A stretch of 46,713 nucleotides of DNA, from positions 1 through 46,713 of the forward strand of contig NZ_CAJYIU010000324.1 in NCBI RefSeq assembly GCF_913775355.1, read 5' to 3'. A program made the translations under genes and the position numbers. The notes beneath the pieces are model-generated. The model was not told the DNA's origin and made no database searches. It saw nothing but the letters and a program-made list of their open reading frames with translations. Shown here in pieces: positions 1-11,489 of this stretch (position 1 is its first letter; every line of letters starts with the position of its first letter). The stretch is from an uncultured Aureimonas sp. Lineage in GTDB: Bacteria > Pseudomonadota > Alphaproteobacteria > Rhizobiales > Rhizobiaceae.

Positions 1-1
1 C

Positions 2-49
2 TTCGGCATCGCCCTGGCACTCACCGGCGTGCGAATGGCCACGAAATAG
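2..49 (+). CDS. C-terminal tail of a truncated protein, possibly a membrane transporter
   Basis: An open frame enters from the left edge and ends at a TAG at 47-49, giving the last residues FGIALALTGVRMATK. The hydrophobic stretch followed by a short basic end resembles the last helix of a drug/metabolite-type (EamA) or similar transporter, but 15 residues cannot identify the family. It lies outside the left attachment-site copy at 288 and therefore belongs to the ancestral chromosome downstream of tRNA-Ser. The 238 bases between it and the element show no convincing gene. Confidence 0.4.
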   Translation, partial: FGIALALTGVRMATK

Positions 50-287
50 GGCCGTCGGCCTGCCCGCAGATCAATGAGTTGCGAGCTGATAGAAAACGGG
101 CCGGGTCTCGTGACGTCGCTCTGAGCGCATGCGTGAGGGTGACCACGTCCAGGATGTTCCGCGAGCGCGGAGTGTCTCCGCATATCGGATCCCCGAAGCT
201 GGAAGTGCGTCCGAACTGGTAGGAAGGATAAACGAAACCACCGAGGCGGCGGCAGCTTCCGGCGCTGTTCGCCCGTAGAAATTGGGG

Positions 288-305
288 TGGCGGAGAAGAT
301 GGGAT
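288..305. repeat. Attachment-site copy, tRNA-distal end
   Basis: The sequence TGGCGGAGAAGATGGGAT is identical to 11201-11218 and matches the 3' end of tRNA-Ser (read on the minus strand). It is presumably the displaced chromosomal tRNA tail left by site-specific integration. The match stops abruptly on both sides (G versus C before, A versus T after), which defines the exact length as 18 bp. Confidence 0.9.
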
Positions 306-375
306 ACGCCCTTCCGCCAACTACTCATTAGAAACATTGACGAATTTCCGCTGAAAATCGCCTGTGCCCAAGCCT

Positions 376-393
376 TGTACCCTTCCTGTACCC
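376..393. repeat. Candidate integrase arm-type site, left end
   Basis: TGTACCCTTCCTGTACCC contains two TGTACCC units 11 bp apart, about one helical turn. It matches 11117-11134 at 17 of 18 positions. Both copies lie inside the element, about 70 bp from their respective attachment-site copies. The position and doubled motif suit arm-type binding sites of a tyrosine recombinase. Binding itself is inferred. Confidence 0.55.
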
Positions 394-409
394 TTCTGGA
401 AAGGGCGAT

Positions 410-652
410 TTATGATCTGTCGACGTTCATCGATTCTGTCGCGCGAAGTTGTGTCGAAGGACGGTGGACCTTGGTTGCACGCGAGCTTTTAAGACCGGCG
501 AGGATTTCGGCAGTCTTTGCCACATCTAGTTGAGCCTTCGACTTCTTCGCAAGGAGATCGATACTCCGCTCTTCATCTTCCCGCGCTGATGGACCACCGT
601 ACATGAGAGCAATAAAAAGCTCACGGTCGAAATCTTCGGCCGATTTGTTCAT
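410..652 (-). CDS. Small hypothetical protein, 80 aa
   Basis: This unrecognised small protein is hydrophilic and mixed-charge, beginning MNKSAEDFDRELFIALMYGG and ending in a basic, Ser/Thr-rich tail. It contains a predicted helical acidic/basic middle section around DEERSIDLLAKKSKAQL, and no membrane segment. The frame stays open up to an upstream ATG at 715, which would add 21 residues, but that stretch is AT-rich and reads more like a promoter region, so I chose the internal ATG at 652. Neither start has a strong ribosome-binding site. It is the last gene before the left end of the element. That it is a real gene is moderately likely; no function is suggested. Confidence 0.45.
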   Translation of the reverse strand: MNKSAEDFDRELFIALMYGGPSAREDEERSIDLLAKKSKAQLDVAKTAEILAGLKSSRATKVHRPSTQLRATESMNVDRS

Positions 653-955
653 TAAACATTTAGTAGAAGGAGCTTCAGAAATTGTTCTACAACCGGCAAA
701 TTCAATGTATCTCATTCTTTATTTAACCAATAAACGCAATATTAAATTACGATTAAGGTATATAGTCATCAAGGACAAAAGACTGTTCCCTGAAATTGGC
801 AGGCATCGGCTCAAGGATTGGGGGGCGTGCTAGATTTCCCGAAATCGTCATATAACGATTGGGGAGGCGGTTACACTCAAAGGATGGATGAATATTGCTG
901 TATCGACGTGCTGCTTTGTACTGAGATTTTCCGGTTCATGATTGATAGCGGACGG

Positions 956-1327
956 TTATAAGCGGATCAGTATCGATCCGAAATCTGGTCCCGACATCGT
1001 GTCTCTATCGCTGAAGAAAACAAGAGAACAGGCGGAATTGATTAGCGTCTCTTGCGTCCGAATGAACTCGAAAATACCCTTCCGTTCGATCCATTCCTTA
1101 AAATGCTCAGGAATGCCGGGGATCAGGTCGCCAATGTCGTGACTCACTAAGTCGCCTTGGCGGATAGCAGAACAATCAGAAAGCTTTGCAAATGTTTCCG
1201 CCTCTTCACTGGTCCAAACCGTGTTGTAGGGACGGAGATCATCGTCCAACGGATCGTACTCGTGTCTCATGAAATCACCGGGTATGACGTGTTGGTCTAG
1301 TAGCTTTCCAATTGCAATAAGGTCCAT
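956..1327 (-). CDS. Hypothetical protein, 123 aa
   Basis: The start at 1327 is chosen because an AGGAGA ribosome-binding site lies about 5 bases upstream; an alternative upstream start at 1348 lacks one. The product is acidic and soluble (MDLIAIGKLLDQHVIPGDF...), with tryptophans in the VWTSEEAE and FKEWIERKG segments. There is no signal peptide or membrane helix. I do not recognise the family. It lies downstream of the DUF2971 gene on the same strand with a gap of about 76 bases, so the two may be co-transcribed. Codon use looks like that of neighbouring element genes rather than the high-GC chromosome. Confidence 0.6.
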   Translation of the reverse strand: MDLIAIGKLLDQHVIPGDFMRHEYDPLDDDLRPYNTVWTSEEAETFAKLSDCSAIRQGDLVSHDIGDLIPGIPEHFKEWIERKGIFEFIRTQETLINSACSLVFFSDRDTMSGPDFGSILIRL

Positions 1328-1403
1328 GGTGTCTCCTGTTCGTCCCACGGTATTTAGTGGGAATGATTAGGAGCGGACGGCTTACGGTTTAAAATGATCG
1401 ACG

Positions 1404-2129
1404 TCAGAATGTTTTTCGCCTTATGAACTCCGGCCTCGCGAGTCTGAACTGTATGTTGTAACCATCTATTTTCATTCTGTATGCCTTGATATCAGCGTCG
1501 AGTTCGTCAATTACCCGCCGAATGTGTAGGGCTACCGACGAATCAACTTTAACGCCAATGTACACTGATGAGATGGCTGCGGGATAACGGTAAGTAACCC
1601 TTCCTTGCTTATTTGAGAATAGCCGCCACTCCCGTTCTGATAGCCATCTAGGGTTTTTCGTTGAAAGTGTAGTTTTGGCAGCTTTAGTGAAATCAGTTGT
1701 TTTTGCCATTAAAAGCGGAGCTTGATCCGAATAATTCATTCTGACAAAAGAGCTTCCTTTCGAAAGACATTTCATTAATGTGCGAAACTTGTATGAAATA
1801 CAAATCCCATTGAATTTGTTGGCATAGTGCGCCCACATTGTATCGTTTTTATGCGACTCGGAAAACGACGCTACTCCCAGCTTTCCCATAGATTGAAACA
1901 GTTTGTCATCGTATTTTTCATATAGCTCTTCATCGTCTGAAAGAAGCGACGACGGGCGTACAAGCCCTTCCATTGCATCATTAAGTGCGTTGAAGTTTCC
2001 GCACCAAATATAATTACGCTGAAGGGCATCAATTTCCTGCTTCACAATATCGCTATTGATATCGGAATCTAGCGGACGATACCTGTAAAGCCTGCTTGGT
2101 ACGGAAGGCGTCTCAATCTCAGCGGCCAT
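1404..2129 (-). CDS. DUF2971 domain-containing protein, 241 aa
   Basis: The whole length fits the DUF2971 family. It opens with LYRYRPL (residues 14-20), followed by the substrate-loop-like segment WCGNFNALNDAMEG (42-55). The family hallmark SFSESHKNDTMWAHYANKFNG follows at about 88-108, and WLSEREWRLF at 162-171 matches the conserved E-x-E-W-R segment near the C-terminus. DUF2971 proteins have no established biochemical role that I can state, but they are commonly carried on accessory and anti-phage-rich islands. A defence role here is inference. The protein is soluble with no signal peptide. The ribosome-binding site is weak (GGGATG), so the exact start is less certain than the identity. 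The gene is AT-richer than the chromosome and is clearly part of the imported element. Confidence 0.82.
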   Translation of the reverse strand: MAAEIETPSVPSRLYRYRPLDSDINSDIVKQEIDALQRNYIWCGNFNALNDAMEGLVRPSSLLSDDEELYEKYDDKLFQSMGKLGVASFSESHKNDTMWAHYANKFNGICISYKFRTLMKCLSKGSSFVRMNYSDQAPLLMAKTTDFTKAAKTTLSTKNPRWLSEREWRLFSNKQGRVTYRYPAAISSVYIGVKVDSSVALHIRRVIDELDADIKAYRMKIDGYNIQFRLARPEFIRRKTF

Positions 2130-2173
2130 AGGTGATCATCCCTATCGTAGGTCATAGTAGCGTAGTTGGGCAG

Positions 2174-2341
2174 CTAGAGAACTGTCCACCCCTTAGTTAG
2201 CAATCCGAGCGCAGCGGTCACGAACGCCAGTAATCCAGTCGCCTTCTGTATCGGTTTCTGTACCGGCTCTGGCGTCGGTGCATGGTAGTGTTTATGAATA
2301 ATGTTGATGGTATGAGCAGTGTAGTTCGTTGTCGTCGTCAT
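2174..2341 (-). CDS. Small single-pass membrane protein, 55 aa
   Basis: A start at 2341 with a textbook AGGAGA site 5 bases upstream gives a 55-residue product. The N-terminal half is polar and His/Thr-rich (MTTTTNYTAHTINIIHKHYH), followed by a Pro-rich linker. A single hydrophobic helix at about residues 35-48 (TGLLAFVTAALGLLTKG) precedes a short tail. Longer versions starting upstream would add an Arg-rich stretch and place the ribosome-binding site inside the gene, so they are less likely. The family is unknown. It is one of several small membrane proteins in this block of the element. Confidence 0.55.
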   Translation of the reverse strand: MTTTTNYTAHTINIIHKHYHAPTPEPVQKPIQKATGLLAFVTAALGLLTKGWTVL

Positions 2342-2453
2342 CGGTTCTCCTAATGGCGGTTTTATACCATATAGGGAGCGTCTAGCCGGGCGATGGCGCT
2401 GGCGCTGGTTCATTACGGCATCCCCTCTAGAGTGACGTTAGTTCATAGACGTA

Positions 2454-2651
2454 CTAAATGCGGCGTTTCGATCCAACTACCAATGCTAGGGGACAGATAT
2501 CCACATCTGGGAAATCTGTTACTTTATCAGCGTCGGCGTTTTGGGCTGTAACGTTCAATAGATCGCGGAAATGCAGGGTTCTGCATTGGACGAGATATCC
2601 ACAGGATCGTTCCCAAGGTAAGAACATCCAATCGTCTTGAGGCTGGATCAT
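2454..2651 (-). CDS. Small soluble protein coupled to the upstream membrane peptide, 65 aa
   Basis: The ATG at 2649-2651 overlaps the TGA stop of the 54-aa membrane protein gene in the form ATGA, the classic arrangement for translational coupling. The product begins MIQPQDDWMFLPWERS and is acidic in the middle (ADADKVTDFPDVD), with four cysteines and no membrane helix. I do not recognise it. Its value is the pairing: a one-helix membrane peptide followed without a gap by a small soluble protein resembles toxin-antitoxin, phage lysis or inhibitor pairs in architecture. The sequence does not show which, if any, applies. The second membrane paralogue at 3052-3213 has no clear partner of this kind. 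Confidence 0.5.
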   Translation of the reverse strand: MIQPQDDWMFLPWERSCGYLVQCRTLHFRDLLNVTAQNADADKVTDFPDVDICPLALVVGSKRRI

Positions 2652-2812
2652 CGGCTCGCGAGCCTGACCCACTCGCGCATGTCGGGGAGGTCCGTCTTGA
2701 AGACGATGGCCAAAGCGATGGCGAGCGCAGCCAGAACAGGCACAAGCCCTCGTGCGCGGATACGCATTCCGAACAGGCTTAGTTCAAACTCGTTGGGATC
2801 ATCTGGCGTCAT
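2648..2812 (-). CDS. Small membrane protein, tandem paralogue A, 54 aa
   Basis: The product starts MTPDDPNEFELSLFG, has a basic stretch (RIRARG), one hydrophobic helix at about residues 23-38 and the charged tail KTDLPDMREWVRLASR. The positive-inside pattern would put the N-terminal basic segment in the cytoplasm. Its neighbour at 3052-3213 shares 25 of the last 29 residues, so the reading frame is under selection and real despite its length. A ribosome-binding site (AAGGG) lies about 10 bases upstream in a leader almost identical to that of the paralogue. Its stop overlaps the start of the 65-aa gene. The family is unknown. Confidence 0.7.
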   Translation of the reverse strand: MTPDDPNEFELSLFGMRIRARGLVPVLAALAIALAIVFKTDLPDMREWVRLASR

Positions 2813-2841
2813 GACGGCTGCCCTTCAAAATCGGGCCGTCT
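2813..2841 (-). repeat. Conserved leader of paralogue A
   Basis: The 29 bases directly upstream of paralogue A match those upstream of paralogue B (3214-3242) at 27 positions. The block includes the ribosome-binding region and a CAAAATCGGGCCGTC core (plus-strand reading). Beyond it the similarity is lost. It is either the remnant of a recent duplication or a retained translational control element. A shorter, weaker resemblance (AGGCCGTCTCC) occurs near 2961. Confidence 0.65.
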
Positions 2842-3051
2842 TCGAACAAGAAGCATTGGGGAAGCTTGGATACACCCGGACTGAAATTGGCTGCGGATAG
2901 CCGGGGAAGCTGGGGATCGCGGCAGGGCGAGCATGGACGGCGCTCCAATTGGAATTTAGGCCGTCTCCTATGAATTACCATTTCGGCGCGGAGTCTAGTC
3001 TGATGGACTGTGTCAACACCCCGGAGCCGGTGTAGGCGACGGGGTGGGGGA

Positions 3052-3213
3052 TCACCGGCTAGCCAACCTGATCCATTCCCGCATGTCCGGTAGGTCCGTT
3101 TTCAGGACAATGGCGAGCGCGATCACTAGCGCCACGAGGACCGCTAACCGCCCCTTGCCCCAGACCTTCGGAGGCCACAGGGAGAACTCAAATTCTGGAT
3201 CGTTCGGGCTCAT
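3052..3213 (-). CDS. Small membrane protein, tandem paralogue B, 53 aa
   Basis: The start at 3213 has a strong GGGGAG ribosome-binding site 5 bases upstream. The layout equals that of paralogue A: a polar acidic N-terminus (MSPNDPEFEFSLW), a basic patch, one hydrophobic helix at about residues 22-37 and the tail KTDLPDMREWIRLASR. The N-terminal 20 residues have diverged much more than the helix and tail, so the conserved part is probably functional. It sits 401 bases from paralogue A in the same orientation. The TGA stop is read as GTGA, and a 26-codon frame follows from that GTG, but this is too short to call. The family is unknown. Confidence 0.7.
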   Translation of the reverse strand: MSPNDPEFEFSLWPPKVWGKGRLAVLVALVIALAIVLKTDLPDMREWIRLASR

Positions 3214-3242
3214 GACGGCTCCCCTTTAAAATCGGGCCGTCT
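3214..3242 (-). repeat. Conserved leader of paralogue B
   Basis: This is the second copy of the 29-base leader described at 2813-2841, differing at two positions. It carries the GGGGAG ribosome-binding site for paralogue B. The similarity ends at about 3242. Confidence 0.65.
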
Positions 3243-3431
3243 CCCATAGAGTAGGTGAACGCCCACCTTGCAAGGACTTTTTGTTTTCGGCTGAACTGTA
3301 CAAACGTTTTGCGAAAATGGACGATGGCTGCGGAGGATCAGAGGAGGGGAGGCCGTTAGGCTGTCTTTGGTCTCCCGTAGAGGACATGCGATCTCAACAG
3401 GCGAGATTTTGCATCCGACAGGAAGCGGACG

Positions 3432-3812
3432 ATGGGGAAAACGACTAAAAGGCACTTTTTCGAGACCATCGCGCCACTCTTGCACACGGTCACAGAAAGG
3501 TTTTTTGACTATCTGTCATGGTTGGTAGTCTTGCTAGGTATTGATTACCTATACAAGCAGACGGGTAGCGTCGTACTTCATACGCTGCATCTCGTCGGCA
3601 GTACACTATGGATGTTTTCACTTATATTGCAGACCTTCTCCCTGACCTATTCCGTTAAGCTTGATGCTGACACCCCTAGTAGTCATAAACTCACAGTCGA
3701 AATCATTCAGTACCTAATTTTCATCACAATGCTGTATGGTTTTTGGGAGTACTGGAAGAACCCAATTGACCTGTCAGAGCCACTGTCCAAACTGCTGGAT
3801 CGACAAGGCTAG
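3432..3812 (+). CDS. Small integral membrane protein, 126 aa
   Basis: The ATG at 3432 follows an AGGAAG ribosome-binding site by about 7 bases. The protein has a basic N-terminus (MGKTTKRHFF) and hydrophobic segments at about residues 26-40 (FDYLSWLVVLLGIDYLY), 49-72 (LHTLHLVGSTLWMFSLILQTF) and 91-106 (IIQYLIFITMLYGFWEYW), so two or three membrane helices. Aromatic residues cluster at the helix ends. I do not recognise the family. It is transcribed away from the small-membrane-protein block, with about 220 bases of spacer between. The roughly 340-base spacer before the next gene holds the res-like region. Confidence 0.65.
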   Translation: MGKTTKRHFFETIAPLLHTVTERFFDYLSWLVVLLGIDYLYKQTGSVVLHTLHLVGSTLWMFSLILQTFSLTYSVKLDADTPSSHKLTVEIIQYLIFITMLYGFWEYWKNPIDLSEPLSKLLDRQG

Positions 3813-3881
3813 GCCGTTTTCTCAAATGCATAAGAATTTCCGAGCCAACCTCATCAAGATAGCGATCCGAGAAGGGGGGGG

Positions 3882-3960
3882 AGGGCACCCCTCGGACCCT
3901 GCCCGGTCGGTCGAGCGGGATCGTCGGCTTAACGGTCGGGCTGACCGTGCCGGGACGATG
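3882..3960. other. GC-rich segment with hairpin potential in the spacer
   Basis: This is the first part of the 344-base gap between 3812 and 4157. It contains a run of eight G residues and a hairpin ACGGTC-GGGCT-GACCGT at 3932-3948. An outer pair, CCCGG (3902-3906) with CCGGG (3950-3954), could close a cruciform. It is much richer in GC than the flanking element genes. No open frame here looks coding, and no T tract follows, so a simple intrinsic terminator is not supported. It may be a structured RNA or a DNA recognition region; the evidence is structural only. Confidence 0.35.
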
Positions 3961-4007
3961 GGGCGGATGATCGGGGATGATGGCCGAGGCTCTTCGCCTT
4001 CATGCTG

Positions 4008-4150
4008 ATCATGTTGTCTCACAATCCGAACTGTCTTGCAAGGGTAAACCGTAGCGAGACAACATGATGAGGCAGATATAGCGTCTCATATAAGTCTCTT
4101 GACGATATACGAGACACATGCGATACACGGTCTAGAACCTAACGAGACAG
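4008..4150. promoter_or_regulatory. res-like inverted-repeat region upstream of the serine recombinase
   Basis: A perfect 13-bp inverted repeat (ATCATGTTGTCTC at 4008-4020, its complement at 4056-4068) is followed by an imperfect 33-bp palindrome at 4083-4115. The palindrome half-sites are GTCTCATATAAG and, on the other strand, GTCTCGTATATC. A further GAGACAG lies at 4144-4150 just before the start codon. Multiple inverted GTCTC half-sites directly upstream of a resolvase gene are typical of a res site that also serves as the operator for the gene. Which subsite would be the crossover site cannot be read from the sequence. Confidence 0.6.
4099..4127 (+). promoter_or_regulatory. Predicted sigma-70 promoter of the serine recombinase gene
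   Basis: TTGACG at 4099-4104 and GATACA at 4122-4127 are separated by 17 bases, giving a start near 4134, about 23 bases before the ATG. The -35 element and most of the spacer fall inside the 33-bp palindrome, so bound recombinase would probably block transcription. Confidence 0.5.
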
Positions 4151-4156
4151 TGTGCC

Positions 4157-4708
4157 ATGAAGACCTATGGATATGCTCGCGTATCGTCCACGGACCAAGA
4201 CCTTACCATTCAGCGTGAGGCCCTGATCAAAGCTGGATGCGATATGGTCAGGGAAGAGAAGGCGTCAGGAACGTCCCGCAACGGTCGGGCTGAGCTAGAG
4301 GCCCTTCTGACGTTCATGCGCTCTGGCGATACCCTGATGGTCACGAGAATAGACCGTCTCGCACGTTCCATCGCGGACCTTGCCGGGATCGTCCGAGAGC
4401 TAGAGACGATGGGCGTGGCTCTCAAGGCTACGGAACAGCCTATCGATACCAGCACACCGGCAGGGCGTGCCTTCCTACAGATGCTTGGCGTCTTCGCTGA
4501 ATTCGAAACGGCCATCCGTCGAGAGCGTCAGCTTGAAGGTATTGCGAAGGCCAAGGCAGAGGGTGCCTACAAAGGTCGGAAGCCAACGATCCAGACTAAC
4601 GAGGTTCGGAAGCTATCGGCCGAAGGGCTGGGAGGGACTGAGATCGCAAAGCGTCTGGGGATCGGTCGAGCCAGTGTCTACCGCATCCTTGGCCAGACTG
4701 CCGGTTGA
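4157..4708 (+). CDS. Serine recombinase of the resolvase/invertase family, 183 aa
   Basis: This small serine recombinase probably resolves multimers or inverts DNA at the adjacent repeats. The N-terminal catalytic domain begins YGYARVSSTDQ, with the nucleophile at Ser10. The arginine-bearing motif RIDRLARS lies at 64-71, and TPAGRAFLQMLGVFAEFE at about 100-117 leads into the long dimer helix. The C-terminal helix-turn-helix is at about 155-180 (TEIAKRLGIGRASVYRIL). At 183 residues it has the normal length of resolvases such as those of Tn3-like elements and plasmids. No transposase gene is nearby, so a multimer-resolution role for the element is more likely than cointegrate resolution. The ribosome-binding site is poor, as in an autoregulated low-level gene. 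Confidence 0.92.
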   Translation: MKTYGYARVSSTDQDLTIQREALIKAGCDMVREEKASGTSRNGRAELEALLTFMRSGDTLMVTRIDRLARSIADLAGIVRELETMGVALKATEQPIDTSTPAGRAFLQMLGVFAEFETAIRRERQLEGIAKAKAEGAYKGRKPTIQTNEVRKLSAEGLGGTEIAKRLGIGRASVYRILGQTAG

Positions 4709-4919
4709 TGGTCGGCTAAAGGGTATCGCAATAATCAATCGCAGGAAAAACGAAACGCGTTTTCCCCGAAGGCGGCTCCTGGCGCGCTAAAAGTGGGCAG
4801 CTAGCAATCTAGCTATGCAACTGAAGCAATGGTTAGAATGCTGATTTATTTGGAAAGCTGACCTTCAACCGGGAATTGTAGTCCTTTTTGAGCGACATGG
4901 AATCGCTTGGGAGAACACA

Positions 4920-5219
4920 ATGCATCGCACGCTTGCCGACCTGTTGGCTGGACTCACTTCAATCTCTGCATTCGTCATGATCGTTGTGGCTATGGCGTTC
5001 GGCTATGCAACAATGGATATTCCGGGACTCATAATGGGTCTGCTTGGTGGCCTTGTCGTCGCCGCCGTGATGTGCGGAACCATAAGCCTCCTCGTTCTCA
5101 TCGAGCGTCATCTTCGTGAGCTTGCCGAAGGTATCCGCCCGGAGGCTGCAAGGTCTGCACCTGTTAGCCGGGCTCGCATGGATTCGGCGGCAGGGCGTAT
5201 CGAGCCCGCGTTGCGCTGA
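4920..5219 (+). CDS. Two-helix membrane protein, 99 aa
   Basis: The start at 4920 follows a GGGAGA ribosome-binding site. Two hydrophobic helices (about residues 10-30, LTSISAFVMIVVAMAFGYA, and 36-61, GLIMGLLGGLVVAAVMCG) form a hairpin followed by a charged tail (IERHLRELAEGIRPEAARS). It begins 211 bases after the recombinase gene, and the gap holds no recognisable gene. I do not recognise the family. The charged, Arg/Ala-rich C-terminal 40 residues are probably cytoplasmic. It is followed on the same strand by a secreted-protein gene, so the two may share a transcript. Confidence 0.6.
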   Translation: MHRTLADLLAGLTSISAFVMIVVAMAFGYATMDIPGLIMGLLGGLVVAAVMCGTISLLVLIERHLRELAEGIRPEAARSAPVSRARMDSAAGRIEPALR

Positions 5220-5281
5220 TCTAGCCGACCTTCATTCCTTACCGTAAGCTCACGGAAGTTGCCCTGAATGGACGATCTCCC

Positions 5282-5788
5282 GTGAAGCCGCTCATCGCTC
5301 TTTCTGCCTTCCTGCTTTCGGTAACGCCGGGCTTCGCTCAGACAGCCGAAGAGACCGTTGCATTCATGCTCGACCGCATGGAAGACGGTGCAGTTCTCGA
5401 CGAGAACATGACTGCCCCTGTTAAAATCGTTTCCACATCGCCAGCAAAGTATGAGCTTGCGTTCAAGCAAGGTGTGGCAACCATCGAATACAAAAAACTC
5501 GATGATTGCAGATACGATCTCCAGTTCGAAGGCGGCGGTCACCAAACTGCTATACGGGTAGACTTCACCCGTATGACTGAGCCGAAGTACGAATACAGTT
5601 ATGATATTCGGAAGCTTAAGCTGATGAAAAGGAAGCCGTCTGGCATTAAATGCGAAACCTTGAAAGGTGATACGCCTTGCGGACAAGATCAAGAGGTATG
5701 GTATACAGAGGATAAGGTTGAATTTGCGAGAATCAAGAAGGCTTTTGCGTACTTCTCTCAGAACTTTTGCAAGCCGCGAGCCTTCTAG
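5282..5788 (+). CDS. Secreted or periplasmic protein of unknown function, 168 aa
   Basis: The frame begins with GTG at 5282, and the first 20 residues form a clean Sec signal peptide (MKPLIALSAFLLSVTPGFAQ) with cleavage expected after AQ. The mature part is about 148 residues, with four cysteines that could form two disulfides in the periplasm. It is rich in beta-type segments (KYELAFKQGVATIEYKKL; CRYDLQFEGGG; KYEYSYDI). I do not recognise the family. Its TAG stop overlaps the stop of the convergent gene at 5785 within a shared CTAG. Exported proteins on elements can act on the cell surface, but nothing here shows a target. Confidence 0.65.
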   Translation: MKPLIALSAFLLSVTPGFAQTAEETVAFMLDRMEDGAVLDENMTAPVKIVSTSPAKYELAFKQGVATIEYKKLDDCRYDLQFEGGGHQTAIRVDFTRMTEPKYEYSYDIRKLKLMKRKPSGIKCETLKGDTPCGQDQEVWYTEDKVEFARIKKAFAYFSQNFCKPRAF

Positions 5789-6033
5789 TCCCCCGGATGA
5801 CGCCACATGATCCGAGCACCTTCCATCATGAGCATACGGCGCTCTGGATAGAGTTCCTTGGCCACGTCGAAGGCGTGTTCCGCGATGTAGATATCATTGA
5901 AGGTGGCCATGATCCGGCTGATCCCGATCATCAGTCGTAGCTCATCGATATCATCCCATTCGAGCCGATACCGGCCCATGCCATCGAACAGCTTAACCGG
6001 CGCTCTCTCTGGCGGCATGACATGCGTTCCCAT
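5785..6033 (-). CDS. Small hypothetical protein, 82 aa
   Basis: The product is a soluble, Met-rich and mixed-charge protein beginning MGTHVMPPERAPVKLFDGMG. Its helical middle contains WDDIDELRLMIGISRIMATFND, and it ends RIMWRHPGD. There is no signal peptide. A second in-frame ATG at 6018 is possible; the ribosome-binding site upstream of 6033 is weak (GAGAA). It converges with the secreted-protein gene, and the two stop codons overlap by two bases. The family is unrecognised, and nothing in its surroundings suggests a role. Confidence 0.5.
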   Translation of the reverse strand: MGTHVMPPERAPVKLFDGMGRYRLEWDDIDELRLMIGISRIMATFNDIYIAEHAFDVAKELYPERRMLMMEGARIMWRHPGD

Positions 6034-6115
6034 TTCGTTCTCACGAGCGATCTAGCGTGAGTCGGCAGGAACGGAGAGAGATTGCGCCTGCGGCATTTGA
6101 GAGCCGGGAAGGGGA

Positions 6116-6535
6116 TCAGAACTTCGAGCAGTTTCCGATTGATGTTCTCACACTGTCGTTCTGCCCGTTCACAAAGCCGAACGATTGGTTTTTAATGAAA
6201 CGCCCCGTATTCCGGTTCGCCGTAAAGTAATATCCATTTCGGTCACTACAGGTTATAACATCACCGTTAAACGGACTGACGTTGCATCCGTAATATTCTT
6301 TCGTCCCTCTTTGATTGACAATTGCGCCAGCCTCGGTGAACTGTAGCGTGAACTTCCCCGATGCGAAGGTTGAACGACTATACGTGCTTCCTTCAGCGTC
6401 AAACCCATTGGCACTCTCTTCTACACAATACAGAACGCTTTCCTGAGCGTCTGATCCATTGTTAATCTTAGAATCTTGCGCCTGTGCGTGGATCGTCCCA
6501 GCCACCATCACCAACGCTACCCAAGCCAGTCTCAT
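6116..6535 (-). CDS. Second secreted protein of unknown function, 139 aa
   Basis: A strong AGGAAGAG ribosome-binding site precedes the ATG at 6535. Residues 1-19 form a signal peptide (MRLAWVALVMVAGTIHAQA) with cleavage expected around AQAQ. The mature chain of about 120 residues is rich in Asn, Ser, Gly and aromatic residues and has four cysteines (YCVEES, YGCNVS, TCSDRNG, NCSKF), which suits an oxidised, beta-rich extracytoplasmic protein. I do not recognise the family. It is not obviously related to the other exported protein at 5282. The repeat-rich non-coding zone lies directly upstream and probably contains its promoter. Confidence 0.65.
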   Translation of the reverse strand: MRLAWVALVMVAGTIHAQAQDSKINNGSDAQESVLYCVEESANGFDAEGSTYSRSTFASGKFTLQFTEAGAIVNQRGTKEYYGCNVSPFNGDVITCSDRNGYYFTANRNTGRFIKNQSFGFVNGQNDSVRTSIGNCSKF

Positions 6536-6594
6536 GGTCTCTTCCTACGATCCCGCGTCATGTTTGCGTCATGGCTAGCATATGGCGAGGAAAT

Positions 6595-6610
6595 TGTAAG
6601 ACGGCGCATT
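6595..6610 (+). repeat. Left arm of a 16-bp perfect inverted repeat
   Basis: TGTAAGACGGCGCATT is the exact complement of 7214-7229, which lies 603 bases away. The first eight bases, TGTAAGAC, recur in the right-hand repeat cluster, so the arm is an extended member of the same motif family. Confidence 0.75.
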
Positions 6611-6820
6611 TTAGGGCTTACGCTTCTCGGATTATTGAAGGCACAACTATCTAGTTGATGATCAGCGGATATGGCTTGAGATATGAGTTGAGGATGACTT
6701 GCGATATCGAGTCCTAATGAATGGCGAAGCAAGAGACGAGTTGAGGAACTAAGACACGAGCTTGCGAGTGGTCGTTCCGATAACGAGTCAATGACCGACA
6801 CGGAATGAACGGAATGAGGC

Positions 6821-6841
6821 GAATGAGGCGAAGCCGAATGA
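6821..6841 (+). repeat. Left arm of a 21-bp imperfect inverted repeat
   Basis: The 21 bases starting GAATGAGGCGAAGC match the complement of 6979-6999 with one mismatch. The arm is made of repeated GAATGA and GCGAAG words, so part of the symmetry comes from low complexity. A long hairpin with a 137-base loop would be possible. Confidence 0.6.
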
Positions 6842-6978
6842 AAGTGAGTGAAACGAACGCAGCCGAATGGAGTGGTAGAGCGAAGCGAGATGACGTGATT
6901 GGTCTACGTCTTCTCTGTTGTGATAACGCTGTAGCGTTTGTGTCATAGAAAGAGAGGCGGCAACTCCTTTCACTTCGC

Positions 6979-6999
6979 TCATTCAGCTTCGCCTCATTC
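6979..6999 (-). repeat. Right arm of the 21-bp imperfect inverted repeat
   Basis: This is the partner of 6821-6841, identical at 20 of 21 positions after complementing. Confidence 0.6.
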
Positions 7000-7134
7000 G
7001 TTTCGTTCTCAGTCGTGCCTTCTGAGCTTAAGGCTTCGCCACACATGGCGTGGCTGCGCCTATCGCTCGGATTTGGGTTGATTTCGTTTTGTGAATGGAA
7101 TCCATGTCTTTGTCAGTTGATGCCATTTCACAGC

Positions 7135-7236
7135 AATTAATTGTAAGACTGCATTTATCTAATAAAGATACGAGGTCTTAGAATTAAATGTAAGACAGAG
7201 TATATATGATAATAATGCGCCGTCTTACATTTAATA
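7135..7236. repeat. Iteron-like cluster, three copies of AATTAAWTGTAAGAC
   Basis: Copies lie at 7135-7149 and 7182-7196 on the plus strand and at 7222-7236 on the minus strand (one mismatch). A related half copy (AAATTGTAAGAC) is at 6591-6602. The spacing of the two direct copies is 47 bases. An inverted GTCTTA at 7175-7180 pairs with TAAGAC at 7191-7196. These look like protein-binding sites, possibly for a replication initiator or repressor. Confidence 0.6.
7214..7229 (-). repeat. Right arm of the 16-bp perfect inverted repeat
   Basis: This is the partner of 6595-6610. It overlaps the minus-strand iteron-like copy and lies only 15 bases from the end of the helicase-like gene. Confidence 0.75.
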
Positions 7237-7244
7237 TTTCGAAA

Positions 7245-8693
7245 TTACACTTTCTTGGGTCTGCCTCGGCTGCGAGTGCTGCCGCGCTCTGCCTTTGTTT
7301 TCGCGTAATAGTCGGCGTTTATCTCGGATCGGGTCTTAGCCGTACCTGTCACCTTCGGCCCTGACTTCTGTCTGTTCGTGCGCTGATTGGTGCCGATATC
7401 GACATGGTTCAGCGTCACGAGACCGGCGCAACCGTAGCCGCTACGCTCAAGGAAATCCTTCAGGAATGTGGCCTGCGTCTTGTCGTAGACGGTGACTGTC
7501 ACGTCCTGCGTGTTGATGGGATCACGCAGCGAAGACCGCAAAACGATTTGAACGAGGTCTTCCCGTTCCCGATCACGAGCTACGATCTCGCGCGCCTCTT
7601 CCGTGTGCAGGCCGGTGAGCTTGCTGATGGTGCCGACTTCCTCATTCGAGCCCTTGGCCGTGTACAGGATCGAGACCTTATCGCAGTGACGAAGGCTGTT
7701 GAGCCCGGCCACCTTTGGGGAATGGCGCTCCCCGTCGATCTTGACCTTCGGCGTGAACTTCACGTTCGCAACCCAATAGTGATGGGTCTTGCTGCCCATG
7801 TTGTAAGCGATCCAAGCCGCTGCCGCGTCCCGGTATGCCTTCCCTTCGTCGGTGGCGAAGAATGCGCTTGTGGCCTGATGCTCGTCCGTAAAGAAATTGA
7901 TCGTCACCTTGCGGGGAAGCCATACGGGAGTCTGTCCCGCGAGGCGCATCGAGACGAATTGGATTTGGGGGAAAAGTTCGGTGTGGATGCGGTGGTTTAG
8001 ACGCTCGTCAAAGGCGTTCGCCACGATCCGCACCCGCTTGTAGGCGCTCAGTGCGAGTAGGTTCCACTGATCGAACCACGTCCACCGTTTCCCGGCCTTC
8101 ACGCCTTCCCAATCCGGTTCCGTCGTGAGGACCGTGGAATGTTCGGTGAGGCGGCGAAACTCAGCCATGTCGCTTATCTGCGTGTCGGCGCGATAGTCGT
8201 TTACCGAAGGCGCACCTGGGTAGGGCTGGATACGGGAAAGCTCGCCTTCGAATGGGCTGAGGCTGTAGAATTCGCGGAAGTGCCCGACTGAGGCGCGGCT
8301 GTTCCACGTCTCGGACGTGAACATCACCGGGTCTTCATCGATGACGATTTCCCAGCCGTCGAAAGCTGAATGATCCGAGAGCATCATCCCCTTGTGCGTG
8401 ATGATCGCGACCACGTGGTCAACGTTGGCGTAGAGCTTGGGAAGCTCGGCTATTTGGGTCGAGACTGAGGACGTGGCGTGCTTCGCCTGCTTGGCGTCTG
8501 AGACGATGGCGACAACGATAGGGGCGGGGAGACCGGCATTCTGTGCCGCGTCGAGGATCAGACGCTTGCGGTCTTTGATTACCTCCCTGCGATCCACGGC
8601 GTAAACGTAGCGCCCACGGTTCTCGCCAATGTCTTTGGTCATTTGTGTGGTCTTACCGGCTCCACACTGTGCGGCGGAATATTCTACCTTCAT
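7245..8693 (-). CDS. SF2-helicase-like P-loop ATPase, probable replication protein of the element, 482 aa
   Basis: A Walker A motif sits at the very N-terminus (QCGAGKTTQ, residues 9-17). A Walker B of DEAD type (IVIDEDP, 116-122) follows, along with VVAIITHKGMM at about 94-104 and a segment resembling motif VI (QIVLRSSLRDP, 382-392) with the arginines expected for an arginine finger. A stretch around SPKVAGLNSLRHCDKVSILYT (325-345) sits where the second helicase lobe is expected. The C-terminus is basic (TRSRGRPKKV), like an AT-hook. I infer a DNA helicase or related remodeller. Its place beside the iteron-like repeats suggests replication of the element, but no primase or initiator domain is visible. 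The start codon lacks a clear ribosome-binding site. Confidence 0.6.
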   Translation of the reverse strand: MKVEYSAAQCGAGKTTQMTKDIGENRGRYVYAVDRREVIKDRKRLILDAAQNAGLPAPIVVAIVSDAKQAKHATSSVSTQIAELPKLYANVDHVVAIITHKGMMLSDHSAFDGWEIVIDEDPVMFTSETWNSRASVGHFREFYSLSPFEGELSRIQPYPGAPSVNDYRADTQISDMAEFRRLTEHSTVLTTEPDWEGVKAGKRWTWFDQWNLLALSAYKRVRIVANAFDERLNHRIHTELFPQIQFVSMRLAGQTPVWLPRKVTINFFTDEHQATSAFFATDEGKAYRDAAAAWIAYNMGSKTHHYWVANVKFTPKVKIDGERHSPKVAGLNSLRHCDKVSILYTAKGSNEEVGTISKLTGLHTEEAREIVARDREREDLVQIVLRSSLRDPINTQDVTVTVYDKTQATFLKDFLERSGYGCAGLVTLNHVDIGTNQRTNRQKSGPKVTGTAKTRSEINADYYAKTKAERGSTRSRGRPKKV

Positions 8694-8725
8694 GCTACCC
8701 GCGAGTGTATTTTCGATTCTGGCGT

Positions 8726-9037
8726 TCAGAAACCGTCTCTTCCAAACCTCAATAAAGAATAAGAAGTGCCTTCACTATCAAAGGTCCTTATCCTGAGTTC
8801 GTCGATACCCGTTCGTTTATAGGCAAGTATACCATATATGCGCCGTAGTTCTATAAAATCTGAAACGTCATCTTCGTTTTCGATTAAAGCTACGAAGTCA
8901 TGGGTCGATACTGCATCGAGGCAACTGTTGTGAACGTCAAGCCGCCAACAAACCTCTAGCACCGAGATGTGTGCGCTGAGTCGTTCGATCTGCGTCGTTC
9001 TCGATGCTGCTCCAAATGCTCCTAATATTATCGACAT
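8726..9037 (-). CDS. Small hypothetical protein, 103 aa
   Basis: This soluble protein begins MSIILGAFGAASRTTQIERL and has an acidic middle (ALIENEDDVSDFIELRRIYG) and a mixed C-terminus. The N-terminal stretch is weakly hydrophobic but too short and polar for a reliable signal peptide. I do not recognise the family. It lies 32 bases upstream of the helicase-like gene on the same strand, so it could be a small regulator or partner of it. No helix-turn-helix is evident by eye. The ribosome-binding site is weak. Confidence 0.5.
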   Translation of the reverse strand: MSIILGAFGAASRTTQIERLSAHISVLEVCWRLDVHNSCLDAVSTHDFVALIENEDDVSDFIELRRIYGILAYKRTGIDELRIRTFDSEGTSYSLLRFGRDGF

Positions 9038-9213
9038 AGACTCTATTCCATCCCGTCTTGTACATTCTTTCGCTCATATGCTTCAGGGGAAGCTATGTCA
9101 AACAAAAAAGTTCTAGTAAAAATAATTTAGATGCTGTAAAACCGCTTAATGACGCTCACTGATGTGGTAGATTTTCTTCTGCAGATTTGCAATCTCAAAT
9201 AAAAGAGAGATTC

Positions 9214-11115
9214 CTATCTACAAATTTTGATGTTATTGGTTTTATTAAGTGATCGCGTGATTATCTCGCCAATCGGGATCGTCGGATAAACGATGGAATC
9301 AACGATGCCCTTCCATCGTTCCTGTATGTCGTGAGAGCCATAATCTTCGTGAGTGTCATTCACTCCCGCCGAATGCCCTGTGAGTCGCCGTTGATCGTAA
9401 TCGCTAGCGTTCTGCGCTCTCATCATATCAACGAACGAGTGACGAGTTGAATGGAAAACGAGCGTCGGATCGGACAGGCCGATATAGGTTAGGTGCTTCC
9501 CAATATCTTTTGAAAGCTGATGCGTCAGCTTGTGCTTCTTATTAATCTTCAATTCGGCGAAAAGCTGACCAGATGCGTTATCGATCTGCCGTCTTGCGAA
9601 GTCTAGAAAGCCAAGGTTGATCAGCGTTTGACTGATGGGAATTTGACGCTTCGTAGGATTGTTTTTCAGTCTGCGGCGTCGAACGCCATCCTTCCATTCG
9701 CGAATATCAATGTACGGAATCGGTGCATCAGCTTTAATGTCGCTTGGCCTGAGCGCGCCGATTTCTTCCAGCCGCATCCCCGTGTAAACGCCGAGAACGA
9801 AGCTCCAATAGAGCGCATCTTGAACGACGATATCACCGGCAGTGGCGCGGGGCAGGGGCTTGAGCCCTGCGCATCCCATATAGATCGGACCACTGAACAA
9901 CGTGGCCAATTCGTCTGGGGTGAAAGGCCGTCTTACCTCTTCGTCATCTTCGATGTGATCAAACACCGGTTCAGCACCATCGAACGGATTGAACGGTATC
10001 TGACGAAGCTTTGCAGCTTGACCGAACACCGGTCTCAAGATCGCGTAATGTTTCGATATGGTCTTCCCGTGAAATGGCTTGAAGTCAGTTCCTTCCCGGC
10101 TCTTCACCACTTGCGGTATGGTCATGAGCTTTTCGGCGTTGGTCACACGAGCCGGGTACTTCGCTAGAAGGTCGAAGAAATTGAGAACGTGATCGCGCTT
10201 CACCTGTATGATCGGGATATCCCCGACACATTCCACAAACCGTTTCAGGTATAGCTCAACGTCGGCACGCGAGCCCTCATCGCCACGGTAGGTCCGAAGA
10301 TAGTCCGTCCGCAGTTCGGTGATGGTCGGCCCAACGTCCTCTATCGATTCAACGGGTGAGGGGAGGGCCGCGACAACGGCAGGCTGACTGACCGTGGCGA
10401 ACGGATCGGCAGGAGGCTGATAAGCCGTCTTCGCGTCCGACACATGCCCGACCAAGGCCGTCCATGGTCGAGTGGGATCGATGATGATGGCTTCCCGTTC
10501 CGCGATGCTCGCGCGTTCCAGCCGGGCGAACGTCTTCCAGTGTCGGTCGATATGCGGGGACTCAGGATCAATGTGCAGTCCTGACCGCCTCAGGGCGTCC
10601 ACCATGCGCTTCCGTGTAAAATCCGGTGCGGGAGCCCAATGGTCCACATATGCGCTTCCTAGGTCTTCCTTGAGCCTAGAAACGGTGTTCCCATCGGTGA
10701 CGGCAATGAGTCGCATCCTCTGATCCGCAGAGGATCGAATCGGCGCGACTCCAAGCTCGGATGTGAAATCGCGTGCCACCGTCTCGTGGTAGGTTACGAG
10801 CCCGGCGACAAAGACGGCTTCGGGGACCGTAACGAACGTGTGGAGCGGCTTGGTATCGCGAACGGCCACATAATCGCGCCACGTCTTGTAGCCCTCATCC
10901 ATGGCGCGGATGCCTTCCGCGATCATTTCGCGGTGCTCAGCCAACATTTTGTCGCGAATTTTCACGGCTAACCGGTCTTCGGTCGTGCCGGTCTGCACGT
11001 GCCATTGCTGACATTCGAAGAATTCAGTCAGTCCCGCTGGCCGCTTCGGAACGCGCATCTGGAAGCGGTAATAGCCGCTCGAAAGCCGCTCAAGGTAGTT
11101 CGGGGATTTTGCCAT
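9214..11115 (-). CDS. Tyrosine recombinase (integrase) of the element, 633 aa
   Basis: This enzyme inserts and excises the element at tRNA-Ser. The C-terminal catalytic domain has Arg448 (YTGMRLEEIGAL), a lysine candidate near 489 (NNPTKRQIPI), His555 and Arg558 (HSTRHS), His581 (LTGHSAG) and the nucleophile Tyr592 (EDYGSH), a complete set. The N-terminus (NYLERLSSGYYRFQMRVPKR) resembles the DUF6538-type head of long integrases, followed by a long linker and a core-binding domain at about 265-370. At 633 residues it is much longer than phage-lambda-type enzymes. I chose the start at 11115 (MAKSPNYLER) over an ATG at 11151 because the shorter form begins at the conserved head and has a GGA ribosome-binding site. 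The TGTACCC repeats overlap this region, which suggests self-regulation. Confidence 0.95.
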   Translation of the reverse strand: MAKSPNYLERLSSGYYRFQMRVPKRPAGLTEFFECQQWHVQTGTTEDRLAVKIRDKMLAEHREMIAEGIRAMDEGYKTWRDYVAVRDTKPLHTFVTVPEAVFVAGLVTYHETVARDFTSELGVAPIRSSADQRMRLIAVTDGNTVSRLKEDLGSAYVDHWAPAPDFTRKRMVDALRRSGLHIDPESPHIDRHWKTFARLERASIAEREAIIIDPTRPWTALVGHVSDAKTAYQPPADPFATVSQPAVVAALPSPVESIEDVGPTITELRTDYLRTYRGDEGSRADVELYLKRFVECVGDIPIIQVKRDHVLNFFDLLAKYPARVTNAEKLMTIPQVVKSREGTDFKPFHGKTISKHYAILRPVFGQAAKLRQIPFNPFDGAEPVFDHIEDDEEVRRPFTPDELATLFSGPIYMGCAGLKPLPRATAGDIVVQDALYWSFVLGVYTGMRLEEIGALRPSDIKADAPIPYIDIREWKDGVRRRRLKNNPTKRQIPISQTLINLGFLDFARRQIDNASGQLFAELKINKKHKLTHQLSKDIGKHLTYIGLSDPTLVFHSTRHSFVDMMRAQNASDYDQRRLTGHSAGVNDTHEDYGSHDIQERWKGIVDSIVYPTIPIGEIITRSLNKTNNIKICR

Positions 11116-11116
11116 C

Positions 11117-11134
11117 TGTACCCGTCCTGTACCC
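11117..11134. repeat. Candidate integrase arm-type site, right end
   Basis: TGTACCCGTCCTGTACCC matches 376-393 at 17 of 18 positions. It lies immediately upstream of the integrase start codon and covers its ribosome-binding site. An inverted GGGTACA at 11141-11147 extends the cluster. Binding here would affect both recombination and integrase translation or transcription. Confidence 0.55.
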
Positions 11135-11200
11135 CATTTTGGGTACATCAAAAGCCTTGTATCTCAGGGCTTTCAGCGGTTTCAATGGCTTGAAGGGTAC

Positions 11201-11218
11201 TGGCGGAGAAGATGGGAT
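11201..11218. repeat. Attachment-site copy, tRNA-proximal end
   Basis: This is the second copy of TGGCGGAGAAGATGGGAT. It is the functional 3' end of tRNA-Ser, including the encoded CCA, so integration leaves the tRNA gene intact. Confidence 0.9.
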
Positions 11219-11290
11219 TCGAACCCACGATACCGTTCCCGGTATACTCCCTTAGCAGGGGAGCGCCTTCGACCACTCGGCCACCTCTCC
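11201..11290 (-). tRNA. tRNA-Ser (anticodon GCU)
   Basis: The 90-base gene on the minus strand starts GGAGAGGTGGCCGAGTGG and ends in an encoded CCA. The acceptor stem GGAGAGG pairs with CTTCTCC (one G-U pair). The anticodon loop reads CTGCTAA with anticodon GCU for AGC/AGU codons. A long variable arm (GGAGTATACCGGGAACGGTATC region) identifies it as serine type, and TTCGAATC forms the T loop. It is the integration target of the adjacent element. Confidence 0.97.
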
Positions 11291-11302
11291 GACGCGGTTG
11301 GG

Positions 11303-11330
11303 AGTATCGGAAGCCCGGGCAATGTTCAAG
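11303..11330 (-). promoter_or_regulatory. Possible promoter of tRNA-Ser
   Basis: On the minus strand CTTGAA is followed after 16 bases by GATACT, ending 12 bases before the mature tRNA 5' end. The elements resemble the alphaproteobacterial CTTGAC/CTATAT consensus, and the position suits a short 5' leader. Confidence 0.4.
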
Positions 11331-11489
11331 GGGCTAACGTCCGTCCGCATCGGAGCGGATCGTTCGGCCCAAGCGCTGGTTACCATACGGCAACTTCCGA
11401 GCCATCCCGTTCGAATTGCACAGGTAATCGCATTGTGGGGCGGCAGCGCCCGCGATAGGTATGCCTGAACTGAACCTTGTCCCGAAAGG

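What the first reader, a model, noticed from the sequence alone, without database searches (positions are those of the whole stretch)
2454..3242. Tandem small membrane proteins with a translationally coupled soluble partner
Two unannotated-size genes (54 and 53 residues) share a single helix and the tail KTDLPDMREW-RLASR; 25 of the last 29 residues are identical while the N-termini have diverged. Their 29-base leaders match at 27 positions. The first overlaps a 65-residue soluble protein gene as ATGA. Duplicated one-helix peptides next to a coupled small protein suggest a toxin, lysis, inhibitor or exclusion system, and I recognise none of the families.
Basis: partly seen in the sequence, partly recalled or inferred. 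Interest (0 to 1): 0.68.

Follow-up and report, generated by a model that had tools for sequence, protein, structure and literature searches.

The report
Paired small membrane proteins, mobile element
Two related, tiny membrane proteins are genuine genes carried by a small mobile DNA element; they seem to belong to a thinly spread, unnamed family and may be controlled by a short hairpin just before the start codon, but what they do is still a guess.

Summary
Two minus-strand genes (B 3213-3052, 53 aa; A 2812-2648, 54 aa) are identical at 35 of 53 positions, 25 of 29 in the tail. Differences are strongly synonymous (pS 0.78, pN 0.235), so both are real proteins under purifying selection. They lie in a 10.9-kb integrative element (288-11221) at the 3' end of tRNA-Ser. 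They are probably not orphans: an unnamed family (F[ED][ILF]S[LI][FW]G.R..ARG plus one helix) turned up in two other genomes, an Aminobacter plasmid and a viral contig; a profile of those four has gene A as its only match in this genome (E 1.9e-4). Three of the four lie beside related integrases. The leader is a 28-nt dyad that contains the Shine-Dalgarno and ends at the start codon; 27 of 29 bases agree although synonymous sites are saturated. Dyads with other stem letters precede the four relatives (combined p 0.0009, post hoc; single hairpins are weak). The 65-residue "soluble partner" is unsupported: no family, and part of it resembles DNA upstream of a ribonucleotide reductase gene. Best guess: hairpin-throttled single-pass membrane effectors, toxin- or exclusion-like; function is inferred only.

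The parts
3052..3213 (-). Gene B, 53-aa single-helix protein
   Evidence: Translation; paralogue of A, purifying selection; hydropathy 2.51; helix 15-51 in model
2648..2812 (-). Gene A, 54-aa single-helix protein; probable member of a wider family
   Evidence: Translation; only match of the outside-family profile in the 4.2-Mb genome, E 1.9e-4
3214..3241 (-). Leader dyad of gene B: GACGGC...GCCGTC, Shine-Dalgarno inside, ends at the base before ATG
   Evidence: fold -13.8 kcal/mol, z -2.29 in a 39-nt stretch, z -1.71 in a 47-nt stretch; stem length reached by 367 of 1000 shuffles
2813..2840 (-). Leader dyad of gene A, same stems
   Evidence: 27 of 29 nt identical to B leader; z -1.38 and -0.69; stem length reached by 241 of 1000 shuffles
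2936..2965 (-). Third leader-like dyad GACGGC...GCCGTC followed by CATG; no paralogue seen behind it, only a 41-codon frame 2934-2809 that ends as ATGA on gene A
   Evidence: z -0.73
2454..2651 (-). 65-codon ORF overlapping A by ATGA; coding status doubtful
   Evidence: no family; 2466-2513 matches DNA upstream of a ribonucleotide reductase gene in three genus-mates; GATATCCACA at 2496 and 2594
288..308 (.). Left attachment repeat (20 of 21 nt)
   Evidence: empty site in G408
11201..11221 (.). Right attachment repeat inside tRNA-Ser (anticodon gct) 11201-11290 (-)
9214..11151 (-). Integrase of the element (645-aa ORF)
   Evidence: PF00589 E 3.7e-7, phrog_1 E 1.1e-26
4157..4708 (+). Serine resolvase/invertase
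   Evidence: PF00239 E 2.4e-39
1404..2129 (-). DUF2971 protein, defence candidate PDC-S31, same strand, downstream of A and B
   Evidence: PF11185 E 5.6e-9, PADLOC PDC-S31 E 4.7e-38
2174..2341 (-). 55-aa small protein with a moderately hydrophobic C-terminal stretch, between the 65-codon ORF and DUF2971
   Evidence: no NCBIfam match; the longer 79-codon reading 2174-2413 has no significant Pfam or PHROGs match

Best explanation
A and B are two genuine single-pass membrane proteins, an accessory gene pair of a 10.9-kb integrative element in tRNA-Ser. They are old duplicates; recognisable similarity begins at the leader dyad and ends just after the stop. They probably belong to an unnamed family of small proteins (N-terminal motif F[ED][ILF]S[LI][FW]G.R..ARG, one helix, variable tail) found mostly beside integrases. 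The mRNA leader can fold so that the Shine-Dalgarno lies in a hairpin abutting the start codon, keeping translation low until it is opened. The proteins then act on the host's inner membrane, most likely as growth-restricting or exclusion effectors. SHOWN: coding selection, element borders, leader conservation. SUPPORTED BUT NOT PROVEN: wider family, hairpin. INFERRED: topology (N-terminus inside), translational throttling, effector role.
For: Selection. Element borders and an empty site in G408; in 20 genus-mates no match to the element's interior except resolvase-like pieces and one 48-nt piece (14 candidates scored per genome). Family: one search lists 22 non-self matches; 19 had loci and were read, and two of these are short ORFs that start at the motif and are 56% identical to each other; L022 led to an Aminobacter plasmid protein (65.8%) and that one to an IMG/VR contig ORF (69%); a profile of these four without A and B matches only gene A in this genome, E 1.9e-4. 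Leader: 27 of 29 identical where only 20 of 53 third codon positions are (binomial 6e-10); dyads of 6 or more pairs with other letters in L022, L035, L128, L134; stems laid side by side by hand (5 genes, L134 left out) change on both sides at 3 of 6 outer pairs. RBS-hiding mRNA structure is typical of type I toxins (PMC11228461, abstract and introduction as shown); a duplicated type I locus is known (zorO/zorP, PMC3919570, passages).
Against: No activity is tested. The hairpin is weak in the window by itself: shuffles reached the stem length in 367 (B) and 241 (A) of 1000, and 6 of 29 other starts of the window have stems of 6 or more (one of the six was a misplaced start; without it 5 of 28). 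In the folds only two G of the A and B Shine-Dalgarno are paired. The family link rests on about 26 residues; gene B is not matched by the outside profile, and two of its four rows were chosen for likeness to A. Close copies were found in no other genome: 1 of 397 in the order and, among 21 of the genus, only the own one strongly.
Confidence: 0.4

Rival explanations
1. Type I toxin-antitoxin pair in the strict sense: A and B are hydrophobic toxins and an antisense RNA is made from the opposite strand of each leader.
For: Size, one helix, tandem duplication, structured leader with the SD inside; the duplicated zorO/zorP locus as precedent (passages).
Against: No sigma-70-like promoter on either strand in 2100-3500 (0 found, 0.7 expected) nor with relaxed hexamers in 2440-3420 (0 found, 1.0 expected); the scans found no sense promoter either, so they are weak evidence. 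No Rfam match in 1-11400 except the tRNA and one far below its cut-off on the tRNA.
Confidence: 0.15
2. Superinfection exclusion or host-envelope modulation proteins (morons): they alter the membrane so that related elements or phages cannot enter.
For: Relatives lie on a viral contig and near integrases and defence-type genes: KAP NTPase, DUF262/DUF1524, HipA, E2/ThiF and JAB.
Against: No phage structural gene among 16 ORFs of this element scanned; no match in the four family libraries searched.
Confidence: 0.15
3. Membrane partners of the DUF2971 defence candidate: B, A, the 55-aa protein and DUF2971 form one co-directional system.
For: Same strand and order; DUF2971 matches PDC-S31, E 4.7e-38.
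Against: A and B have no tblastn match at E 1 in the three DUF2971 loci opened, of six plasmid records found; DUF2971 has none in the four loci of A's relatives.
Confidence: 0.1
4. The leader dyads are DNA operators for a dimeric repressor (or recombinase sites), not RNA hairpins.
For: 28-30 bp dyads; three copies within 440 bp and only two unrelated pattern matches elsewhere in the genome; a serine recombinase lies in the element and next to L022; the hairpins are weak by energy.
Against: The 3' arm ends at the base before ATG in 5 of 6 genes and 3 bases before it in the sixth, always with the SD inside, although stem letters differ.
Confidence: 0.2
5. Lysis proteins (pinholin-like).
For: Small, one helix; L035 lies near an M15 peptidase.
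Against: No endolysin or other lysis gene among 16 ORFs of the element scanned, though many of the 16 have no informative match.
Confidence: 0.04

Closest known systems
Unnamed family represented by WP_268738208 (Aminobacter niigataensis plasmid paAMD1, 'hypothetical protein')
   Same: N-terminal F-x-x-S-L-F-G-x-R-x-x-A-R-G motif followed by one hydrophobic helix; dyad with the SD inside at the start codon; integrase nearby
   Different: Relatives start MNRF, lack the P-x-D-P extension and the KTDLPDMREW tail, and no second copy was found in the loci held
Type I toxins such as ZorO/ZorP, Hok, TisB, TimP
   Same: Small, hydrophobic, mRNA structure over the ribosome site; zorO/zorP is a duplicated locus
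   Different: No evidence of an antisense RNA here; leader is a 28-nt dyad, whereas zorO has a UTR of about 180 nt; toxicity untested
DUF2971 / PADLOC PDC-S31 defence candidate
   Same: Neighbouring gene of the same element and strand
   Different: A different protein; no conserved link to A and B in the loci opened

Membership tests
Unnamed F-x-x-S-L-F-G-x-R-x-x-A-R-G family | N-terminal motif F[ED][ILF]S[LI][FW]G.R[LI].ARG | tested here: met
   Gene A: only match in its genome, E 1.9e-4. Gene B carries a degenerate motif (FEFSLWPPKVWGKG) and is not matched by the profile; its tie is to A
Unnamed F-x-x-S-L-F-G-x-R-x-x-A-R-G family | one hydrophobic helix after the motif | tested here: met
   hydropathy, model of B
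Unnamed F-x-x-S-L-F-G-x-R-x-x-A-R-G family | dyad of 6 or more pairs with the SD inside, ending 0-3 bases before the start codon | tested here: met
   6 of 6 genes; moderate statistics, and 6 of 29 unrelated starts also have such stems
Unnamed F-x-x-S-L-F-G-x-R-x-x-A-R-G family | recurrent context, not defining: divergent integrase of one kind with a gp17-like gene in between | tested here: not met
   Seen in 3 of 4 relatives (gp17-like intact in 2, partial match in 1); no match in the L035 region held nor in the window, whose integrase has no tblastn match to theirs
Type I toxin-antitoxin | small hydrophobic protein under 60 aa | tested here: met
Type I toxin-antitoxin | antisense RNA antitoxin | tested here: inconclusive
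   no promoter-like site found; a consensus scan cannot exclude it
Type I toxin-antitoxin | toxicity on expression | not testable with these tools
   needs bench work
Phage holin/pinholin | linked endolysin or lysis cassette | tested here: not met
   no lysis gene among 16 ORFs of the element scanned

The most novel reading that the evidence does not exclude
A dispersed family of mobile-element membrane peptides whose common, structure-conserved control is a start-codon-abutting hairpin that hides the Shine-Dalgarno (a minimal, portable translation switch), opened by an element- or phage-specific signal to release membrane effectors that protect or stabilise the element; here the hairpin-plus-gene unit has been duplicated as a cassette, with a third leader left behind.
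Probability: 0.15. Interest if true: 0.65.

Novelty: new variant of a known kind. Interest (0 to 1): 0.4.

Why it matters
Genes of 39-70 codons on mobile DNA are easily missed or left as 'hypothetical'. Here codon-level selection shows two of them to be real, a family emerges across a plasmid, a viral contig and chromosomes, and a shared leader layout gives a direct, testable handle on their control. If the proteins are effectors, this is a compact new membrane effector family, mostly beside integrases in variable regions.

Tried and rejected
Homologue searches with B alone or the A/B pair: order (1 of 397 genomes, the own one); genus (11 of 21 genomes at E <= 1, only the own one strong); plasmids and phages; viral and genome contigs: nothing. 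In one search, 21 of 394 genomes had matches at E <= 0.05, about what chance gives. It lists 22 non-self places; 19 had loci and were read, 3 were not. Only L022 and L035 proved to be short ORFs starting at the motif; most others were pieces of longer frames (for example a COX3-like and a lipoprotein-like frame, recalled identifications). The minus-strand loci were first read on the wrong strand; 9 of them (and the chance loci L003-L005) were re-read.

Leader pattern: 1 of 385 class genomes, the own one; 0 in viral contigs. Own genome, looser pattern: 3 element copies and 2 unrelated.

Island siblings: integrase in genome and viral contigs none; 2 phage and 32 plasmid records with distant matches, not opened. 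The 482-aa protein: none in viral contigs or phages, 2 of 394 family genomes including the own one. DUF2971: none in viral contigs, 6 plasmid records, 3 opened.

Upstream translational coupling (a frame through the leader that ends in ATGA): B 91 codons, A 41, L022 24, L134 130, none in L035 and L128; not a family feature. As the second codons of these genes begin with A, the ATGA stop is automatic.

Enlarged profile in 337 order genomes: 4 with matches at E <= 0.01, the own one and three in frames of 271-318 codons that I did not examine; 14 pattern stretches in viral contigs, none confirmed. PDB: one chance-level match, E 0.18. No protein search of the 65-codon ORF was made beyond the family libraries and the loci held. 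Literature (listings only): no paper on this family seen, which says little, since motifs cannot be searched there.

In L035 and L128 an in-frame ATG lies in the 5' arm of the dyad; the plasmid record takes the second ATG as start. No clean border of the duplication can be given: before the leader 11 of 31 and after the stop 19 of 60 bases agree, but unconstrained sites are saturated.

Full report
WHAT IS THERE. The window is a whole contig of a 4.2-Mb genome in 337 contigs. Genes B (3213-3052) and A (2812-2648) lie on the minus strand, 239 bases apart. 35 of 53 aligned residues agree, 25 of 29 in the tail, and 27 of 29 leader bases.

ARE THEY GENES? Yes. Of 159 aligned coding bases 59 differ: 15, 11 and 33 at codon positions 1, 2 and 3. 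Nei-Gojobori pS 0.78 against pN 0.235; in the last 29 codons 0.74 against 0.094. None of 5000 random placements of as many substitutions kept as many residues. Synonymous change is saturated, so the duplication is old and no finite ratio can be quoted for the whole gene.

THE ELEMENT. 288-308 and 11201-11221 match at 20 of 21 bases, the latter being the 3' end of tRNA-Ser (anticodon gct). In genus-mate G408 the counterpart of the window's left flank (3-53) and the tRNA end lie about 300 bases apart, as flank and left repeat do here: an empty site. In 20 genus-mates matches to window 1-12000 were the tRNA side, resolvase-like pieces and, in two, the 48-nt piece discussed below; at most 14 candidates were scored per genome. 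Of 16 ORFs of the element that I chose and scanned against Pfam and PHROGs these have clear matches: a 645-aa integrase, a serine resolvase, a 482-aa protein (phrog_2467, unknown function) and a DUF2971 protein, which also matches PADLOC's candidate PDC-S31. No relaxase, capsid or lysis gene was recognised among the 16.

THE WIDER FAMILY. The A/B profile gave 22 listed non-self matches in 394 family genomes, in number about what chance gives. Of the 19 with loci, two were short ORFs starting at the motif, with AGGAGG-like ribosome sites: L022 (39 aa) and L035 (69 aa), 56% identical to each other. L022 found a 70-aa hypothetical protein on an Aminobacter plasmid (65.8%, E 6e-9), and that one a 39-aa ORF on an IMG/VR contig (69%). 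A profile of these four, without A and B, has one match at E <= 10 in the own genome: gene A, E 1.9e-4. L022 and L035 were chosen by likeness to A, so this is not fully independent; the other two were not. The shared part is the N-terminal motif and the start of the helix, about 26 residues; the KTDLPDMREW tail was seen only in this element, and gene B is linked only through A.

CONTEXT OF RELATIVES. L022, the Aminobacter gene and the viral-contig gene each lie divergent from integrases 70-77% identical to one another; in between is a gene like the tail-completion protein gp17 in two (Pfam E 2e-6, and 3.5e-4, the latter below the curated cut-off) and a partial match (42% over 50 residues) in the third. 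Near L022 also lie UvrD-like, E2/ThiF and JAB genes, near L035 a HipA and an XRE-type protein, near the others a KAP NTPase and a DUF262/DUF1524 protein. The window's integrase has no tblastn match to those integrases.

THE LEADER. In A and B the 28 bases before ATG are a dyad, GACGGC...GCCGTC, with the Shine-Dalgarno inside. It is 27 of 29 conserved although only 20 of 53 third codon positions of the gene behind it are (binomial 6e-10; 2e-4 against the overall coding identity). The letters themselves are constrained, or were homogenised by gene conversion; the two differences are not synonymous in the frame that crosses the leader and ends in ATGA. The four relatives have the same layout with other stems: 10 pairs in L022, 7 in L035 and L128, 7 in L134 (three bases short of ATG). 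With stems laid side by side by hand, 3 of 6 outer pairs differ on both sides (5 genes). Against this: shuffles reach the stem length in 367, 241, 2, 115, 92 and 43 of 1000 (B, A, L022, L035, L128, L134); 6 of 29 other starts of the window have stems of six or more, one of those six being a misplaced start; folding z-scores of the six leaders range from -0.69 to -3.41 over two stretch lengths; and only two G of the A and B Shine-Dalgarno pair. Combined over four lineages p is 0.0009; 4 of 4 against 6 of 29 gives 0.005. The idea was formed on these same sequences.

A third dyad (2965-2936) stands between the genes, with no paralogue recognised behind it.

THE 65-CODON ORF. It overlaps A as ATGA, but has no family match and a poor single-sequence model. 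Bases 2466-2513 match 41 of 48 in two genus-mates and 84% over 43 in a third, in DNA between a phosphoribosyltransferase gene and a ribonucleotide reductase gene (names gpt and nrdJ recalled from the protein sequences, from no call), about 135 bases before the latter's start in G408. In an alignment of the window with 5 of the 17 such regions held (the other 12 lacked the start word I used) TGTGGATA is invariant. GATATCCACA, close to the DnaA box (recalled), occurs twice in the window, both times inside this ORF (0.05 expected). Regulatory or origin-like DNA is at least as likely as a protein.

HOW IT MOST LIKELY WORKS. Inferred: the hairpin keeps A and B at low translation; something opens it; the peptides insert in the inner membrane and limit growth, entry or a competitor. 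Structures that hide the ribosome site are typical of type I toxin mRNAs (PMC11228461, abstract and introduction as printed in the outline), and a duplicated type I locus is known (PMC3919570, passages). No promoter-like site was seen on either strand, which neither supports nor excludes an antisense RNA. Whether they are toxins cannot be told.

Noticed in passing
window 2466-2513: 41 of 48 bases match DNA upstream of a ribonucleotide reductase gene (nrdJ, recalled name) in genus-mates G408 and G405, 84% over 43 in G411. How a mobile element came to share it is unexplained.
   Followed up: partly
window 2496-2505 and 2594-2603: The only two GATATCCACA words of the window lie 98 bases apart, DnaA-box-like (recalled); possible origin of the element, which also encodes a 482-aa protein with a GAGKTT motif.
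   Followed up: partly
window 376-393 and 11117-11134: TGTACCC repeats about 70-90 bases inside each attachment site, possible integrase arm sites.
   Followed up: no
window 4005-4156: Inverted repeat GTTGTCTC / GAGACAAC and further GAGACA words just upstream of the serine resolvase gene, possible recombination site.
   Followed up: no
own genome C182 start and C23 start: A phosphoribosyltransferase gene (gpt, recalled) is split between two contig ends that overlap by about 120 bases.
   Followed up: partly
L135:11461-17987: Beside the L022 relative: UvrD-like helicase, E2/ThiF and JAB genes, a probable defence cluster.
   Followed up: partly
L134:5542-5949 and L135:9231-9659: Tail-completion gp17-like genes next to an integrase; whether they are outside a structural cluster was not checked beyond the loci held.
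   Followed up: partly
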